Shown one piece after another: positions 14,484 to 39,992 of a DNA stretch of 64,000 nucleotides. The position numbers and the translations under genes were made by a program. Origin of the DNA: Nocardioides aquaticus (GTDB lineage Bacteria; Actinomycetota; Actinomycetes; Propionibacteriales; Nocardioidaceae); assembly GCF_018459925.1 (NCBI RefSeq), contig NZ_CP075371.1:4154001-4218000 (forward strand). Direction: 5' to 3'. Below the pieces are notes generated by a model, which was given only the letters and a program-made list of their open reading frames with translations, made no database searches and was not told where the DNA came from. Position 1 is the first letter of the stretch, and each line of letters opens with the position of its first letter.

Positions 14484-14579
14484 GCGTGCTCCCCGGATGC
14501 ATCGGCTGGTCGACGGTGATGCGTCATCCGACCGGTCCCACGCACCGATGTCAACGACCCCCCTGGTCGGGGCCGCCTC

Positions 14580-14585
14580 TACGAT
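14580..14585 (+). promoter_or_regulatory. leaderless -10 element for the aminotransferase gene
   Basis: TACGAT ends 7 bp before the ATG at 14593. The TANNNT-n6/7-start pattern is the signature of leaderless transcripts in actinobacteria and decides the start of this gene. Confidence 0.6.
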
Positions 14586-14592
14586 GGCGCGC

Positions 14593-15813
14593 ATGAGCAC
14601 CCCCGAAGCCGTCAGCCCCCGCGAGCGCCGCGTCTCCGCCCGGGTGGGCGCGATCGCCGAGTCCGCGACGCTCAAGGTCGACTCCAAGGCCAAGGCGCTC
14701 AAGGCGGAGGGCCGACCGGTCGTCGGGTTCGGCGCCGGGGAGCCCGACTTCCCGACCCCGGCCTACGTCGTGGACGCCGCGGTCGAGGCCTGCCGCGACC
14801 CGCGCAACCACCGCTACTCCCCCGCCGGCGGCCTGCCGGAGCTGAAGCAGGCCATCGTCGACAAGACCCGCCGCGACAGCGGCCTGGTGGTCGAGCCGGC
14901 GCAGGTGCTGGTCACCAACGGCGGCAAGCAGGCCATCTACGGCGCCTTCGCCGCGATGCTCGACCCCGGCGACGAGGTGATCCTGCCCGCGCCCTACTGG
15001 ACGACCTACCCCGAGGCGATCGCCCTGGCCGGCGGCCGCCCGGTCGAGGTGCTGGCCGACGAGACCCAGGACTACAAGGTGACCGTCGCGCAGCTGGAGG
15101 CGGCGCGCACCGAGCGGACGAAGGTGCTCCTCTTCGTCTCGCCGTCCAACCCGACCGGCGCGGTCTACACCGCCGACGAGATCCGCGAGATCGGCGCCTG
15201 GGTGGCCGAGCACGGTCTGTGGGTGCTGACCGACGAGATCTACGAGCACCTGGTCTACGACGGCGTCGAGACCGGCTCGATGCCGGTGCTGTGCCCCGAC
15301 CTGGTCGACCAGTGCGTGGTCGTCAACGGCGTGGCCAAGACCTACGCGATGACCGGCTGGCGGGTCGGCTGGATGATCGGCCCGAAGGACGTCGTCAAGG
15401 CGGCCACGAACCTGCAGTCGCACGCGACCTCGAACGTCGCCAACGTCTCGCAGCGGGCGGCGATCGCCGCCCTGACCGGCGACCTGACCGCGGTCGAGGA
15501 GATGAAGACGGCCTTCGACCGGCGCCGCCGGCTGATCGTGTCGATGCTGAACGAGATCGACGGCGTCGTCTGCCCGACCCCGCTCGGGGCGTTCTACGCC
15601 TACCCGTCGGTGAAGGGGCTGCTGGGTCGCGAGCACGGCGGCGTCCGCATCGACACCTCGGCCGAGCTGGCCGAGTGGATCCTGGAGCAGGCCGAGGTGG
15701 CGGTGGTGCCGGGCGAGGCGTTCGGCTCGCCGGGCTACCTGCGGCTGTCCTACGCCCTGGGCGACGAGGACCTCGTCGAGGGCGTCAGCCGGCTGCAGAA
15801 GCTCTTCGGCTGA
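14593..15813 (+). CDS. pyridoxal-phosphate-dependent aminotransferase (aspartate aminotransferase type)
   Basis: 406 residues with fold-type I class I aminotransferase features: [10 protein letters not shown] near the N-terminus, [32 protein letters not shown], and the catalytic lysine in [14 protein letters not shown]. It most likely transfers amino groups between aspartate and 2-oxoglutarate. In Actinobacteria such aspC genes often lie near tRNA-Trp/secE. The start is ATG 14593, where a TACGAT -10 predicts a leaderless message; ATG 14584 is an alternative. Confidence 0.93.
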
Positions 15814-15814
15814 C

Positions 15815-16876
15815 GTGGGTCTCGAGACGTTCGCTGGCGCTCACTCCTCGACCAACGCGGCCCGCGACGTCCGGACGCTGCCCAAGGCCCACCTGCACCT
15901 GCACTTCACCGGGTCGATGCGGCACGACACGCTGCTCGAGCTCGCGGCGCGGGACGGGATCGCGCTGCCGGACTCGCTGGTCTCGGGGTGGCCGCCCCAG
16001 CTGAGCGCGGCGGACGAGAAGGGCTGGTTCCGCTTCCAGCGGCTCTACGACGTCGCGCGGTCGGTGCTGCGCACCGAGGACGACGTCCGGCGGCTGGTGC
16101 GGGAGGCGGCCGAGGACGACGCGGCCGACGGCGGCGGGTGGCTGGAGATCCAGGTCGACCCCAGCGGGTACGCGGCCCGCTTCGGGGGCATCACCGCCTT
16201 CCTCGACCTCGTCCTCGACGCCGCCCGGGAGGCCACGGCCTCCACCGGGGTCGGGGTGGCGGTCGTCGTCGCGGCCAACCGCACCCGCCACCCGCTGGAC
16301 GCCCGCACCCTGGCCCGCCTCGCGGCGCAGTACGCCGGGCGCGGCGTGGTCGGCTTCGGGCTGTCCAACGACGAGCGGCGCGGCACCACCACGGACTTCG
16401 CGGCCGCCTTCGCCATCGCCGGACGCGCCGGCCTGCTCCTGCTGCCGCACGGCGGCGAGCTGCGCGGCCCCGAGCACGTGCGCACCTGCCTGGACGTCCT
16501 GCGCCCGGCCCGGCTCGGGCACGGCGTCCGCTCGGCCGAGGACCCGGACCTGCTGGCCCGGGTGGTCGACGCGGGCATCGCGCTCGAGGTCTGCCCGGTC
16601 TCGAACGTCTCGCTCGGCGTCTACTCCGACCTGTCCTCGGTGCCGGTGCCGACGCTGCTGGAGGCCGGCGCCACCGTCGCCCTGGGCTCGGACGACCCGC
16701 TGCTGTTCGGCTCACGGCTGGCCGGGCAGTACGCGACCATGCGCGCCGCCCACGACCTCGACGACGACGCCCTGGCCGGGCTGGCCCGGATGTCGGTGCG
16801 GGCCAGCGCGGCCCCCGACGACGTCCGGGCGCGGCTGCTGGCCGGGATCGACGACTGGCTGGCCGCCCCGGCCTGA
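15815..16876 (+). CDS. adenosine deaminase family protein
   Basis: 353 residues of the metal-dependent ADA/AMP deaminase family. Zinc and catalytic motifs in order are KAHLHLHFTGS, HGGEL, RLGHGVRS and ALGSDDPLLF. The substrate could be adenosine, adenine or a modified purine; motifs do not decide. The GTG start at 15815 follows the aminotransferase stop by 1 bp, so the genes are coupled. Unusually, the first 13 or so residues are encoded by a copy of the dispersed palindromic repeat described below, and no alternative ATG or GTG lies between it and the conserved KAHLHLH. Confidence 0.88.
   Translation: MGLETFAGAHSSTNAARDVRTLPKAHLHLHFTGSMRHDTLLELAARDGIALPDSLVSGWPPQLSAADEKGWFRFQRLYDVARSVLRTEDDVRRLVREAAEDDAADGGGWLEIQVDPSGYAARFGGITAFLDLVLDAAREATASTGVGVAVVVAANRTRHPLDARTLARLAAQYAGRGVVGFGLSNDERRGTTTDFAAAFAIAGRAGLLLLPHGGELRGPEHVRTCLDVLRPARLGHGVRSAEDPDLLARVVDAGIALEVCPVSNVSLGVYSDLSSVPVPTLLEAGATVALGSDDPLLFGSRLAGQYATMRAAHDLDDDALAGLARMSVRASAAPDDVRARLLAGIDDWLAAPA
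15818..15854 (-). repeat. dispersed palindromic repeat, copy inside a CDS 5' end
   Basis: This stretch matches the repeat seen at 21649, 38118, 38148 and 39923 in reverse orientation (GGTCTCGAGACG at one end, TCCTCGACCA at the other) with a few substitutions. It lies in the first codons of the adenosine deaminase gene. Confidence 0.75.
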
Positions 16877-21582: not shown

Positions 21583-21629
21583 GACAGCAGCGGATCACTG
21601 TCACCCGGTGGCAGCGATCCGCTGCTGTC
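21583..21629. terminator. long bidirectional hairpin between convergent genes
   Basis: A 14-bp perfect outer stem (21583-21596 with 21616-21629) encloses a nearly complete inner stem, CTGTCACC against GGTGGCAG, giving an almost unbroken 47-nt hairpin. It lies 13 bp after the thioesterase gene and faces the converging glycosylase gene, so it may terminate both. Confidence 0.6.
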
Positions 21630-21648
21630 ATCGAAGGGCCCAGCCCTC

Positions 21649-21740
21649 GGTGGTCGAGGAGCGAGCGACAGCGAGCGTCTCGAGACCCCCCACCAGGTCT
21701 CGAGTCTCGGGCCGAGCGGCCCTCGCACCTCGACCACCGG
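21649..21740. repeat. head-to-head pair of the dispersed palindromic repeat
   Basis: A forward copy (21649-21687, beginning GGTGGTCGAGGAGCGAGC and ending CGTCTCGAGACC) faces a diverged reverse copy (21696-21740) across 8 bp. The pair can fold into one large hairpin. There is no gene between the copies. Together with the hairpin at 21583 it fills the 187-bp gap between the thioesterase and glycosylase genes. Confidence 0.75.
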
Positions 21741-21756
21741 ACGGGCCCGGCGGGCC

Positions 21757-37141: not shown

Positions 37142-38104
37142 ATGCCTGCTCCCGTGCAGCTCGGCCAGCACGCGCCGCCGCGTCACGTGATCGCCCACCT
37201 CAGCGACCCGCACCTGCTGGCGCACGGGGTGCGGCAGTACGGCGCGGTGGACACCGAGGCCGGTCTGGCCGCGGCCCTCGCCCGGCTGCGCCGCCTCGAC
37301 CCGGCGCCCCAGGCGCTCGTGTTCACCGGCGACCTCGCCGACCTCGCCGAGCCGGCGGCGTACGACCGGCTGCGCAAGGTGGTCGAGCCGGTCGCCGGCG
37401 AGCTGGGCGCCGAGGTGGTGTGGGTGATGGGCAACCACGACGACCGTGCGGCGTTCTCCGAGATCCTCCACTCGCAGCCGCCGGCGCACCCCGGCGCGAC
37501 CCAGGACCGCGTGCACGTCGTCGACGGCCTGCGGGTGGTGTCGCTGGACACGACCGTGCCCGGCTACCACCACGGGGAGGTCACGCCGGATCAGCTGACC
37601 TGGCTGGCCGGGGTGCTGGCCTCGCCCGCGCCGCACGGCACCGTGCTGGCCCTGCACCACCCGCCGATCCCGGTCCCGATGCTGCGCGGGGCGGAGGTCA
37701 TCGAGCTGGCCGACCAGCACGAGCTCGAGGCGGTGGTGCGCGGCAGCGACGTCCGACTGGTGATCGGCGGCCACTTCCACCTCACGTCGTGGTCCACCTT
37801 CGCCGGCGTCCCGGTCTCGGTCGCCTCCGCCACCTGCTACACCTCCGACCCGGCTCCGGGCCACGGACTCGTCGCGGGCGTCGACGGCCACCAGGCCCTG
37901 ACCGTGCTGCACCTCTACGACGACCGCGTGGTCCACACCGTCGTCCCCGTCGCCGCCGCCCCGGTGGTCAGCGGCTACGACGACGACGTGGTCGCCCGGA
38001 TCGAGGCGATGAGCCCCGAGGAACGGCGCGAGCAGGTCTCGCGCGCCGACTCACCGCTGAACGCCGCCACCGAGGACCACGCCGCCGCCTCCGTCGACCC
38101 CTGA
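37142..38104 (+). CDS. calcineurin-like metallophosphoesterase (CpdA-like)
   Basis: 320 residues. All family motifs are present in order: HLSDPHLL, FTGDLADLAEP, WVMGNHDDRAAF, ALHHPPIP and IGGHFHLTSW, giving a dinuclear metal site. Class III phosphodiesterases of this type hydrolyse cyclic nucleotides or other phosphodiesters; cAMP is a plausible but unproven substrate. The C-terminal 70 residues are less conserved and acidic. Confidence 0.9.
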   Translation: MPAPVQLGQHAPPRHVIAHLSDPHLLAHGVRQYGAVDTEAGLAAALARLRRLDPAPQALVFTGDLADLAEPAAYDRLRKVVEPVAGELGAEVVWVMGNHDDRAAFSEILHSQPPAHPGATQDRVHVVDGLRVVSLDTTVPGYHHGEVTPDQLTWLAGVLASPAPHGTVLALHHPPIPVPMLRGAEVIELADQHELEAVVRGSDVRLVIGGHFHLTSWSTFAGVPVSVASATCYTSDPAPGHGLVAGVDGHQALTVLHLYDDRVVHTVVPVAAAPVVSGYDDDVVARIEAMSPEERREQVSRADSPLNAATEDHAAASVDP

Positions 38105-38117
38105 CGCGCGACGGGGC

Positions 38118-38185
38118 GGTGGTCGAGGAGCGAGCGCAGGCGACCCCGGTGGTCGAGGAGCGAGCGCAGCGAGCGTCACGAGACC
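38118..38185 (+). repeat. two tandem forward copies of the dispersed palindromic repeat
   Basis: A shortened copy (38118-38145) and a full-length copy (38148-38185) both begin GGTGGTCGAGGAGCGAGC; the second ends in the GAGCGTCACGAGACC form of the repeat. They lie between the phosphoesterase stop and the SOS promoter of the DUF222 gene. Confidence 0.8.
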
Positions 38186-38194
38186 CTCCACAAA

Positions 38195-38206
38195 GGACCT
38201 AGGTCC
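38195..38206. promoter_or_regulatory. 12-bp perfect palindrome upstream of the SOS box
   Basis: GGACCTAGGTCC is a perfect palindrome 9 bp before the LexA box, near where a -35 element would lie. It may be an additional operator; no regulator is known to me for it. Confidence 0.35.
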
Positions 38207-38214
38207 ACTGATGG

Positions 38215-38230
38215 TCGAACATATGTTCGA
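38215..38230. promoter_or_regulatory. LexA (SOS) box of the DUF222/HNH gene
   Basis: TCGAACATATGTTCGA is a perfect 16-bp palindrome matching the mycobacterial/Bacillus-type SOS box TCGAAC-N4-GTTCGA. It ends 1 bp before the -10 hexamer, so bound LexA would block RNA polymerase. This predicts DNA-damage induction of the downstream nuclease gene. Confidence 0.9.
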
Positions 38231-38231
38231 G

Positions 38232-38237
38232 TATACT
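38232..38237 (+). promoter_or_regulatory. leaderless -10 of the DUF222/HNH gene
   Basis: TATACT ends 6 bp before the ATG at 38244, placing the transcript start at or next to the start codon. It supports ATG 38244 over the upstream ATG 38211. Confidence 0.75.
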
Positions 38238-38243
38238 AGATCC

Positions 38244-39776
38244 ATGACCACCACCGCAGACGACGGCACCGGGCCCGACCCGACGCTCGACGTCGAGGCT
38301 GCGGTGGAGGTCGAAGCGGTGATGTCACCGGACCCGTCGTTCTGGGAGTGGGTCCACGCACTCGACACCGAGCGCGAGACCACCCGGGTCGAGGCGCTGG
38401 CGGTGGTCAAGAACGCCAGGGCCGTGCAGGCCGCAGCCGACGTCGCGGTCCTGCAGTCGATCGTGGAGTGGTGCGTGATCAACGAGGCCCTCACCGATGA
38501 TGAGGCGATGTGGATCGCCGGGTACGGCGACCACGGCCTGTCCCTGGGCGGGGTCGGGTGCCCGCTGGTGCGCGAGTCCGCGGTCATCGAGCTGTCCGCC
38601 GTGCTGGGGGTGTCCACCAGGTCCGGTGCCAACCAGGTCGCTGTGACGTTGGAGCTGCGGTACCGGCTACCGCGGTTGTGGGAACGCGTGATCTCCGGGG
38701 CGTGTCCGGTGTGGCGTGCCCGCCAGGTCGCGGAGAAGACCATGGGCCTGTGCGAGGACGGCGCCGCCGAGGTCGACCGCCTCGTCGCCCCCTTCGCGCA
38801 CGCCATCTCCTACGCCCAGCTGTCCCGGATCACCGACGAAGCACTCCTACGCTGGGACCCCGAAGCGGCCGAAGAGAAACGCCGCGCCGCAGCGGACGGC
38901 AGGTACTGCCGCATCGGCCTGAGTAAGCACGTCGATGGCACCGTGCAGCTCGACGCCGGCCTCGACCTCGCCGACGCGATCGCCCTCGAAGCAGTCGTCA
39001 GCGACCGGGCCCACGCCCTGGCCCAGGACGGGTCCACCGAATCGTTGGACGTCCGCCGCTCCCAGGCCCTTGGCTCGCTGGCGACCGGACAGCCCACCCT
39101 GCCCGAGGGTCAAGAGATGCCGACTCCGGCGGGTCCGAGCCTGGTGCTGTACGCCCACATCCCCGGCGCCGTCTTCAACCCCCTGTTCTGCACCACCAGC
39201 CCCGCCAGCGGGGCCCAGCTCTCGCGGCTGGACAACCGCCACCCAGCGAAAGGCCCGATCACCACCGCCCAGGTCCGGCAGTGGGCCCACACCGCGGCCA
39301 GCATCACGATCCGGCCCGTCATCGATCTGGCCGAGACGATCCATTGCGACTCCTACGAGTGCTCCGACCGTCTCAAGGAACAGACCGCCCTGCGCGATCT
39401 GACGTGCGTGTTCCCGTGGTGCACCAACCCGGCGGTGTTCGCCGACATGGACCACGTCGTCCCGCACCCCGAAGGGCTCACCGAGACCGGGAACGTCGCC
39501 CCCGCCTGCCGCCAGCACCACCGCGCGAAGACCCACATGGGCTGGGCCTACGACGTCCTCGGACCCGGCCTCTACCTGTGGACCAGCCCGATCGGGCAGC
39601 GGTACCTGCGCTCCCACACCGGGACCCACCCCCTCGACGTGCTCCCACCCGGGCCACCACCCGACCCACTGCCCGAGCAACCCGACACCACCCCGTACCA
39701 GGCACCGCCCCCGGTGCCGGACGATCCCGACGGCGCCGCCGAGCCTCCACCCCGAAACGACCCCCCACCCTTCTGA
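38244..39776 (+). CDS. DUF222/13E12-type HNH endonuclease
   Basis: 510 residues. The N-terminal DUF222 (13E12 repeat) domain covers about residues 40-330. The HNH nuclease follows at about 390-435: CVFPWCTNPAVFADMDHVVP with paired cysteines, then PACRQHHRAKTHMGW. The C-terminal 50 residues are proline-rich and probably disordered. The promoter has a perfect SOS box and the unit is bracketed by inverted palindromic repeats. Codon use appears less extreme (AAGACC, TTG, GAA codons are visible) than in neighbours. 13E12 proteins are multicopy in actinobacteria; their job is not established. Confidence 0.92.
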   Translation: MTTTADDGTGPDPTLDVEAAVEVEAVMSPDPSFWEWVHALDTERETTRVEALAVVKNARAVQAAADVAVLQSIVEWCVINEALTDDEAMWIAGYGDHGLSLGGVGCPLVRESAVIELSAVLGVSTRSGANQVAVTLELRYRLPRLWERVISGACPVWRARQVAEKTMGLCEDGAAEVDRLVAPFAHAISYAQLSRITDEALLRWDPEAAEEKRRAAADGRYCRIGLSKHVDGTVQLDAGLDLADAIALEAVVSDRAHALAQDGSTESLDVRRSQALGSLATGQPTLPEGQEMPTPAGPSLVLYAHIPGAVFNPLFCTTSPASGAQLSRLDNRHPAKGPITTAQVRQWAHTAASITIRPVIDLAETIHCDSYECSDRLKEQTALRDLTCVFPWCTNPAVFADMDHVVPHPEGLTETGNVAPACRQHHRAKTHMGWAYDVLGPGLYLWTSPIGQRYLRSHTGTHPLDVLPPGPPPDPLPEQPDTTPYQAPPPVPDDPDGAAEPPPRNDPPPF

Positions 39777-39871
39777 CCCACCGCTGACACCCCAGCAGCA
39801 GCCGTACCGCCGGACCGGGCACGCCCACCGGCGGTACCGGCACGCCCAGGCCCCCTCACCCCCGTCGATGG

Positions 39872-39904
39872 GTGATCTGCACGCACCAGATGCGTGCAGA
39901 TCAC
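39872..39904. repeat. 14-bp inverted repeat after the DUF222/HNH gene
   Basis: GTGATCTGCACGCA (39872-39885) and TGCGTGCAGATCAC (39891-39904) flank a 5-nt loop. It could be a terminator of the HNH gene without U-tract or part of the repeat-bounded unit. The gap 39777-40030 otherwise contains only the repeats at 39923-39992. Confidence 0.7.
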
Positions 39905-39922
39905 ACGTCGACCACCGGCCCT

Positions 39923-39992
39923 GGTCTCGAGACGCTCGCTGCGCTCGCTCCTCGACCACCGGTGACAATGGCTCTCGCTCCTCGACCACCGG
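39923..39992 (-). repeat. reverse-orientation copies of the dispersed palindromic repeat
   Basis: A full copy (39923-39960) in reverse orientation to the pair at 38118-38185 is followed by a partial copy (about 39971-39992). The DUF222/HNH gene is therefore enclosed by inverted repeats. Confidence 0.8.

What the first reader, a model, noticed from the sequence alone, without database searches (positions are those of the whole stretch)
38118..39992. SOS-controlled DUF222/HNH nuclease gene enclosed by inverted copies of a dispersed repeat
The HNH gene (38244-39776) has two forward repeat copies on its left (38118-38185) and one full plus one partial reverse copy on its right (39923-39992), so the unit resembles an element with inverted ends. 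The same repeat occurs without a gene at 21649-21740 and inside a CDS at 15818. 13E12/DUF222 proteins are multicopy and unexplained in actinobacteria. A testable idea is that the HNH nuclease nicks or cuts at the repeat and mobilises or repairs it, as RAYTs act on REP elements in other bacteria, with induction by DNA damage. The link between nuclease and repeat is inference.
Basis: partly seen in the sequence, partly recalled or inferred. Interest (0 to 1): 0.8.

Follow-up and report, generated by a model that had tools for sequence, protein, structure and literature searches.

The report
SOS nuclease gene within paired repeats
A DNA-cutting gene, probably switched on by DNA damage, sits in this soil bacterium inside a repeated unit with inverted ends that exists in many variant and shortened copies; it looks like a self-spreading piece of DNA that uses a nuclease rather than a transposase, which could help explain a large, unexplained gene family of actinobacteria.

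Summary
The HNH gene (38244-39776) lies in a 1.9-kb unit: repeats (R) pointing inward at both ends, an SOS-type box, the ORF, and a 49-bp palindrome (P) on its 3' side. The genome has six such units (83-91% identity to the window protein, unrelated flanks). A second, very distant DUF222/HNH subfamily shares R and P but has no SOS box. Inward R on both sides: 10 of 19 DUF222/HNH genes, 0 of 626 other genes examined. Short R-P-R units without a gene exist. In Nocardioides sp. AX2bis the window site has R and P but no ORF. At several shared sites the ORFs are more diverged than their flanks and group by species. Models of both subfamilies give DUF222 a ParB/Noc-like DNA-binding fold joined to an HNH nuclease. 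Best explanation: a homing-like selfish unit; the nuclease binds P and/or R and cuts, and recombination copies the unit. Cutting, and any contact of nuclease with R or P, are inferred. The link is not general: many DUF222 genes of the genus lack R. RAYT/REP membership fails (no tyrosine transposase; R is no hairpin).

The parts
38118..38139 (+). outer, short R copy at the left end
38148..38185 (+). inner, full-length R (38 nt) at the left end
38215..38230 (.). SOS/LexA-type box TCGAACATATGTTCGA upstream of the ATG
   Evidence: exact; exact box upstream of all 6 own A units and of all 6 AX2bis copies
38233..38238 (+). TATACT, possible -10 element (by eye, recalled consensus; the promoter scan found none)
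   Evidence: sequence
38244..39776 (+). DUF222-type/HNH nuclease gene, 510 aa
38436..38855 (+). residues 65-204: ParB/Noc-like DNA-binding fold in the predicted model
   Evidence: same fold in subfamily B
39405..39536 (+). residues 388-431: HNH core; C388, C393, H404, C422, H425, H426 invariant and N417 nearly so in 52 sequences
39864..39912 (.). 49-bp palindrome P on the 3' side of the ORF, core CACCAGATG
39923..39960 (-). inner, full-length R at the right end
39971..39992 (-). outer, short R at the right end
21649..21738 (.). gene-less inverted R pair, 90 bp, MITE-like
   Evidence: 21640-21745 folds with z -4.9
21584..21628 (.). palindrome with core CACCCGGTG beside the short pair (approximate ends)
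15818..15856 (-). solo R directly after the stop of ORF 14548-15813, read as the N-terminus of ORF 15815-16876

Best explanation
The window gene is the only ORF of a multi-copy, repeat-bounded selfish DNA unit: R> R> - SOS box - DUF222/HNH ORF - palindrome P - <R <R. SHOWN by sequence: the unit's borders, its copies on unrelated flanks, purifying selection on the ORF, shortened gene-less derivatives, presence/absence of the ORF and of solo R between two species, and ORFs more diverged than their flanks at several shared sites. INFERRED: DNA damage relieves LexA and the nuclease is made; its ParB/Noc-like domain binds a palindromic site (most likely P) and/or R; the HNH domain nicks or cuts there; homologous recombination with another copy repairs the break and copies the unit (homing-like gene conversion), while failed repair leaves gene-less R-P units, tandem R arrays and rearrangements at R.
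Confidence: 0.5

Rival explanations
1. Passenger: R (and R-P) units are spread by an unrelated recombinase or by host recombination, and DUF222/HNH genes are cargo or use R as a landing place.
For: 52 of 114 held R hits lie outside the DUF222/HNH loci; two very divergent subfamilies share one R; a solo R of about 42 bp is present in own and absent in AX2bis at 2061663, and a block of 3 R the other way at 2060899; in 29 R loci of other genomes (one per genome) only 2 have an HNH relative within about 1.5 kb.
Against: No other gene is enclosed inward by R (0 of 626); the orientation rule recurs in other species; the only ORF of the A unit is a nuclease under purifying selection.
Confidence: 0.22
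2. The nuclease acts in a transposase-like way: HNH cuts at R ends, excises the unit or R-P derivatives and inserts them elsewhere (RAYT-like logic with a different chemistry).
For: Inverted ends; 11 MITE-like pairs of 88-285 bp in the held stretches of the two genomes; clean solo presence/absence and a site where R lies in opposite orientation in the two species (own 4430455).
Against: No target duplication found; HNH nucleases alone are not known to me to join strands (recalled); 3 of 6 own A sites are shared, ORF and all, with AX2bis.
Confidence: 0.13
3. Host function: an SOS-induced nuclease of repair or cell death, with R and P as terminators or insulators at a recombination-prone locus.
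For: Five putative HNH endonucleases are induced recA-dependently in M. tuberculosis (PMC8151990, passage); purified MSMEG_1275, an HNH DNase, cleaves DNA and its overexpression kills (PMC9416677, passages; the word DUF222 is not in that paper); of 38 R hits outside these loci and outside ORFs 17 lie between convergent genes.
Against: Multi-copy, decaying, species-specific pattern is typical of selfish DNA; the terminator scan finds no T-tailed hairpin at P; PADLOC finds no defence family.
Confidence: 0.12

Closest known systems
13E12 / REP13E12 (DUF222-HNH) genes of mycobacteria
   Same: multi-copy HNH genes of the 13E12 family listed as LexA targets (PMC4181829, passage); REP13E12 regions among the most gene-converted loci of M. 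tuberculosis (PMC13061034, passages)
   Different: inverted R ends, 3' palindrome and gene-less derivatives are described here for Nocardioidaceae-type genomes; I did not examine mycobacterial loci and did not read the 1999 REP13E12 paper
REP/REPIN-RAYT systems (PMC3116915, passages)
   Same: gene accompanied by a dispersed repeat, inverted doublets as miniature units, tandem repeat clusters
   Different: HNH nuclease with a ParB-like fold, not a tyrosine HUH transposase; R is not a hairpin; the palindrome is a separate element
HNH homing endonuclease genes (recalled)
   Same: nuclease as the only gene; spread by gene conversion is the proposed route
   Different: bounded by inverted repeats, many copies within one genome, no intron or intein, no single conserved target gene
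ParB/Noc/Spo0J DNA-binding domain
   Same: fold of residues 65-204 (A) and about 50-173 (B) in predicted models
   Different: fused to HNH; a ParB-type CTPase part was not looked for; binding not tested
IS elements with MITEs (recalled)
   Same: terminal inverted repeats, internal-deletion derivatives
   Different: no transposase ORF in the A unit, no target duplication seen

Membership tests
DUF222 / 13E12 (PF02720) | sequence match to the DUF222 profile | tested here: met
   window protein alone 0 hits at 1e-3 and no DUF222 even at E<=1, but the 46%-identical P0020 has PF02720 E 4e-10 and the A and B profiles match, 96.8%, E 3e-10; met through relatives only
DUF222 / 13E12 (PF02720) | intact HNH core | tested here: met
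   C388, C393, H404, C422, H425, H426 invariant, N417 nearly, in 52 sequences
REP/RAYT | tyrosine (Y1/HUH) transposase | tested here: not met
   Pfam at E<=1 gives only HNH for the window protein
REP/RAYT | repeat is itself a palindrome/hairpin | tested here: not met
   single R folds no better than shuffles (z -0.20 and +0.47)
REP/RAYT | gene accompanied by the repeat, inverted doublets elsewhere | tested here: met
IS element | terminal inverted repeats | tested here: met
IS element | transposase gene inside | tested here: not met
   in the 6 A units the one predicted gene between the R copies is the DUF222/HNH ORF
IS element | target-site duplication | tested here: inconclusive
   two clean solo-R presence/absence sites, one with a 2-bp overlap, one with 4 unaligned bases; none for a whole unit
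homing endonuclease element | site-specific cutting followed by copying | not testable with these tools
   indirect only: ORFs more diverged than flanks at several sites and grouping by species
ParB/Noc DNA-binding domain | fold | tested here: inconclusive
IscB RNA-guided nuclease | match to the IscB model | tested here: not met
   window protein 0 NCBIfam families at 0.1; P0020 14.2 bits against cut-off 175

The most novel reading that the evidence does not exclude
A transposase-free mobile DNA family: a DUF222 protein is a ParB-like palindrome reader fused to an HNH nuclease which, switched on by DNA damage in some subfamilies, cuts at its own palindrome or repeat and spreads gene-bearing units and gene-less repeat-palindrome units by recombination, converting variants at shared sites. 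The multi-copy DUF222/13E12 genes of actinobacteria would largely be such selfish units or their remains.
Probability: 0.33. Interest if true: 0.87.

Novelty: new variant of a known kind. Interest (0 to 1): 0.74.

Why it matters
PF02720 genes were found in 143 of 147 sampled genomes of this genus, often in many copies, and their role is open; a 2026 study says REP13E12 regions lack a defined function though they are gene-conversion hotspots (PMC13061034, passages). A defined unit, a candidate palindromic target, a predicted DNA-binding fold and a likely damage-controlled promoter make the question testable: does the nuclease cut its own palindrome or repeat, and does that drive conversion? If so, it is a way for repeats to spread without a transposase.

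Tried and rejected
Generality to all DUF222 genes: rejected. De novo search of inverted flanks at the best PF02720 locus of 30 other genomes gave scores of 10-14, no excess over mixed-locus controls; the same procedure scores the two-sided own units 23-49, so the method can see such ends. R as a REP-type hairpin: rejected. Close phage or plasmid carriers: 3 plasmid records and 1 phage record match, none covering 80% of the query. Known RNA family at P: only a sub-threshold miRNA hit. T-tailed terminator at P: not found. Defence family: none at 0.01. PDB by sequence: nothing convincing. Foldseek for model A had no match at E<=0.001, so the fold claim rests on VIA-align of Foldseek's candidates. 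Clean empty site of a whole unit: looked for, not found. At the window site AX2bis also lacks the neighbouring ORF 37142-38104 (its probe piece was one of 4 of 30 not found; sequence read by eye), so more than the HNH ORF differs there. AX2bis copy L110 (own 2471.7k) has unclear flanks and was left out of the argument. Ten paper searches listed no report of DUF222/HNH genes in such a unit; only open-licence papers are held, listings were capped, and the 1999 REP13E12 paper was not read.

Full report
WHAT WAS REPORTED AND CHECKED. The window is bases 4154001-4218000 of a 4.58-Mb single-contig genome. The full R is 38 nt (consensus GGTGGTCGAGGAGCGAGCGCAGCGAGCGTCTCGAGACC in this genome); many copies are truncated (46 of 114 held hits have the full second half at <=6 mismatches).

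GENOME-WIDE ASSOCIATION. R has 115 hits at <=2 mismatches against 1+1 for the reversed pattern; 114 lie in the stretches I held. The genome has six copies of subfamily A, the window gene included (83-91% identity to it), and eight of a second subfamily, B, two of them broken; five further DUF222/HNH relatives form set C. Two-sided inward R within 700 bp is found at 10 of these 19 genes, and R on at least one side at 14 of 14 A and B and 0 of 5 C. Of 626 other predicted genes in the held stretches 0 are enclosed inward, 1 is enclosed by R in direct orientation, 109 have R on one side and 516 have none. Fisher p is 2.9e-17, but the copies are related and the stretches were chosen around R, so this is a description, not a count of independent events. 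Gene models come from my own codon-usage caller.

UNIT ANATOMY. The six A copies align from the outer R to the outer R and lose similarity outside (by eye); unit lengths are 1856-2025 bp. All six have an exact TCGAACNNNNGTTCGA box upstream (11 such sites in the genome, 6 at A units, one near the start of a C gene), and so do six AX2bis copies. No B gene has such a box at <=1 mismatch close upstream in the list. A 49-bp palindrome P (GTCGAYGKGTGATCTGC-NNN-CACCWGRTG-NNN-GCAGATCACMCRTCGAC) lies on the 3' side of 10 of 14 A and B genes by the strict half-site pattern and on the 5' side of none; with two diverged versions judged by eye it is 12 of 14. Of the two exceptions one (3281k) also lacks the 3' R; the other (475k) has R but no P there. 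Of 23 two-sided palindromes in the genome 20 lie within 100 bp of an R (3 do not: 1273731, 2179619, 4383912). Pairing in P is kept in the outer arms and the core but poorly at three spacer positions, which argues for a protein-bound dyad more than an RNA stem.

DERIVATIVES AND THE SISTER SPECIES. Eleven short inverted R pairs of 88-285 bp were found in the held stretches (4 own, 7 AX2bis); 9 of 11 enclose P or a P variant (by eye). The own copy at 1847383 still holds the 3' end of the HNH reading frame, so it is an internal-deletion derivative (by eye). AX2bis (G134) has 288 R hits at <=1 mismatch. Of the six own A sites three carry the ORF in AX2bis (674k, 1079k, 1980k) and three have R and remnants of the unit but no ORF (2449k, 3044k and the window site). 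The reverse holds at own 3843k (one R plus P; AX2bis has the ORF). Another AX2bis copy joins regions that are 91 kb apart in the own genome, with breakpoints next to R, and the 674k unit is syntenic on one side only. Solo R is cleanly present/absent at 2061663 (own has it) and 2060899 (AX2bis has 3 R); many other junctions are copy-number differences of R arrays. At own 4430455 R lies in opposite orientation in the two species.

ORF REPLACEMENT. Identity own against AX2bis, ORF then flanks: 674k 82.1, 91.0 (one flank); 1079k 82.1, 95.6 and 91.0; 3281k (B) 78.2, 93.1 on the left, while only 232 bases of the right flank align; 1980k 87.3, 92.1 and 90.0; 2664k (B) 86.3, 94.1 and 79.2. So the excess is clear at three sites, slight at one and mixed at one. 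In a tree of the 12 A sequences the AX2bis copies plus own_1980 group away from the other own copies (support 1.000), so the copies at 674k and 1079k do not pair by site (FastTree; one AX2bis sequence is only 53 codons long, and L110 and L111 run on in an altered frame to 557 and 875 aa). Conversion among copies, or replacement by an incoming variant, explains this best. dN/dS is 0.16-0.31 among full A copies other than AX_L110, 0.25-0.38 with AX_L110 (one pair not computed) and 0.33-0.87 with the 53-codon fragment.

OTHER SPECIES. R at <=1 mismatch is in 81 of 147 sampled genomes of the genus and in 64 of 293 of the order; the 7 outside the family have one hit each. Of 15 DUF222/HNH loci picked by gene in other genomes (L258-L272), 3 are enclosed inward (all G058), 5 have R on one outer side only (one of them, L269, also has an R between its two HNH pieces) and 7 have none (R at <=2 mismatches to four variants). 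Of the 20 regions, 17 were picked from R positions alone, by preference R clusters and once (G336:C2) because the R spacing looked like a unit; 7 of these 17 hold a DUF222/HNH relative, each with R pointing inward. They include another genus (G336) and, in G038, very divergent genes (26-29%) with an SOS box. The other three were picked knowing an HNH hit and are not counted. Against this: the best PF02720 loci of 30 genomes show no inverted flanks above control (positive control); of 29 R loci, one per genome, 2 have an HNH relative; and G029 and G131 have 51 R each with few HNH relatives.

MECHANISM AND VERDICT. I favour a homing-like selfish unit (0.5). Shown: unit, copies, derivatives, polymorphism, ORF divergence at shared sites. 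Inferred: LexA control in vivo, binding to P or R, cutting, copying. Passenger, transposase-like and host-function readings remain open. Literature seen: passages of PMC10589994, PMC3116915, PMC13061034, PMC4181829, PMC8151990 and PMC9416677; PMC3733652 was searched for four terms without a match; the rest only as search listings.

Noticed in passing
window 15818-15856: An R copy directly after a stop codon is read as the first codons of the following ORF, whose next residues (LPKAHLHLHFTGS) look adenosine-deaminase-like (recalled motif; not searched).
   Followed up: partly
own genome 4430455-4430492 (L082) and L244: A solo R inside a predicted ORF lies in opposite orientation in AX2bis at the same place: inversion or independent insertion.
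   Followed up: partly
L097 4688-7021 (own 2725687-2728020): One B unit has expanded arrays: 13 R on the left and 8 on the right, with three P copies on the 3' side.
   Followed up: no
L302, L303 (G038): DUF222/HNH genes only 26-29% like the queries used, with an SOS box and R arrays pointing inward.
   Followed up: no
L270-L272 (G060): Multi-copy DUF222 genes with an exact SOS-type box but no R: another way of being multi-copy.
   Followed up: no
own genome 1273731, 2179619, 4383912: Three P palindromes without a held R within 30 kb.
   Followed up: no
L113; own 475.5k and 566.5k: An AX2bis HNH remnant lies at the junction of two regions 91 kb apart in the own genome, with R at both breakpoints.
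   Followed up: partly
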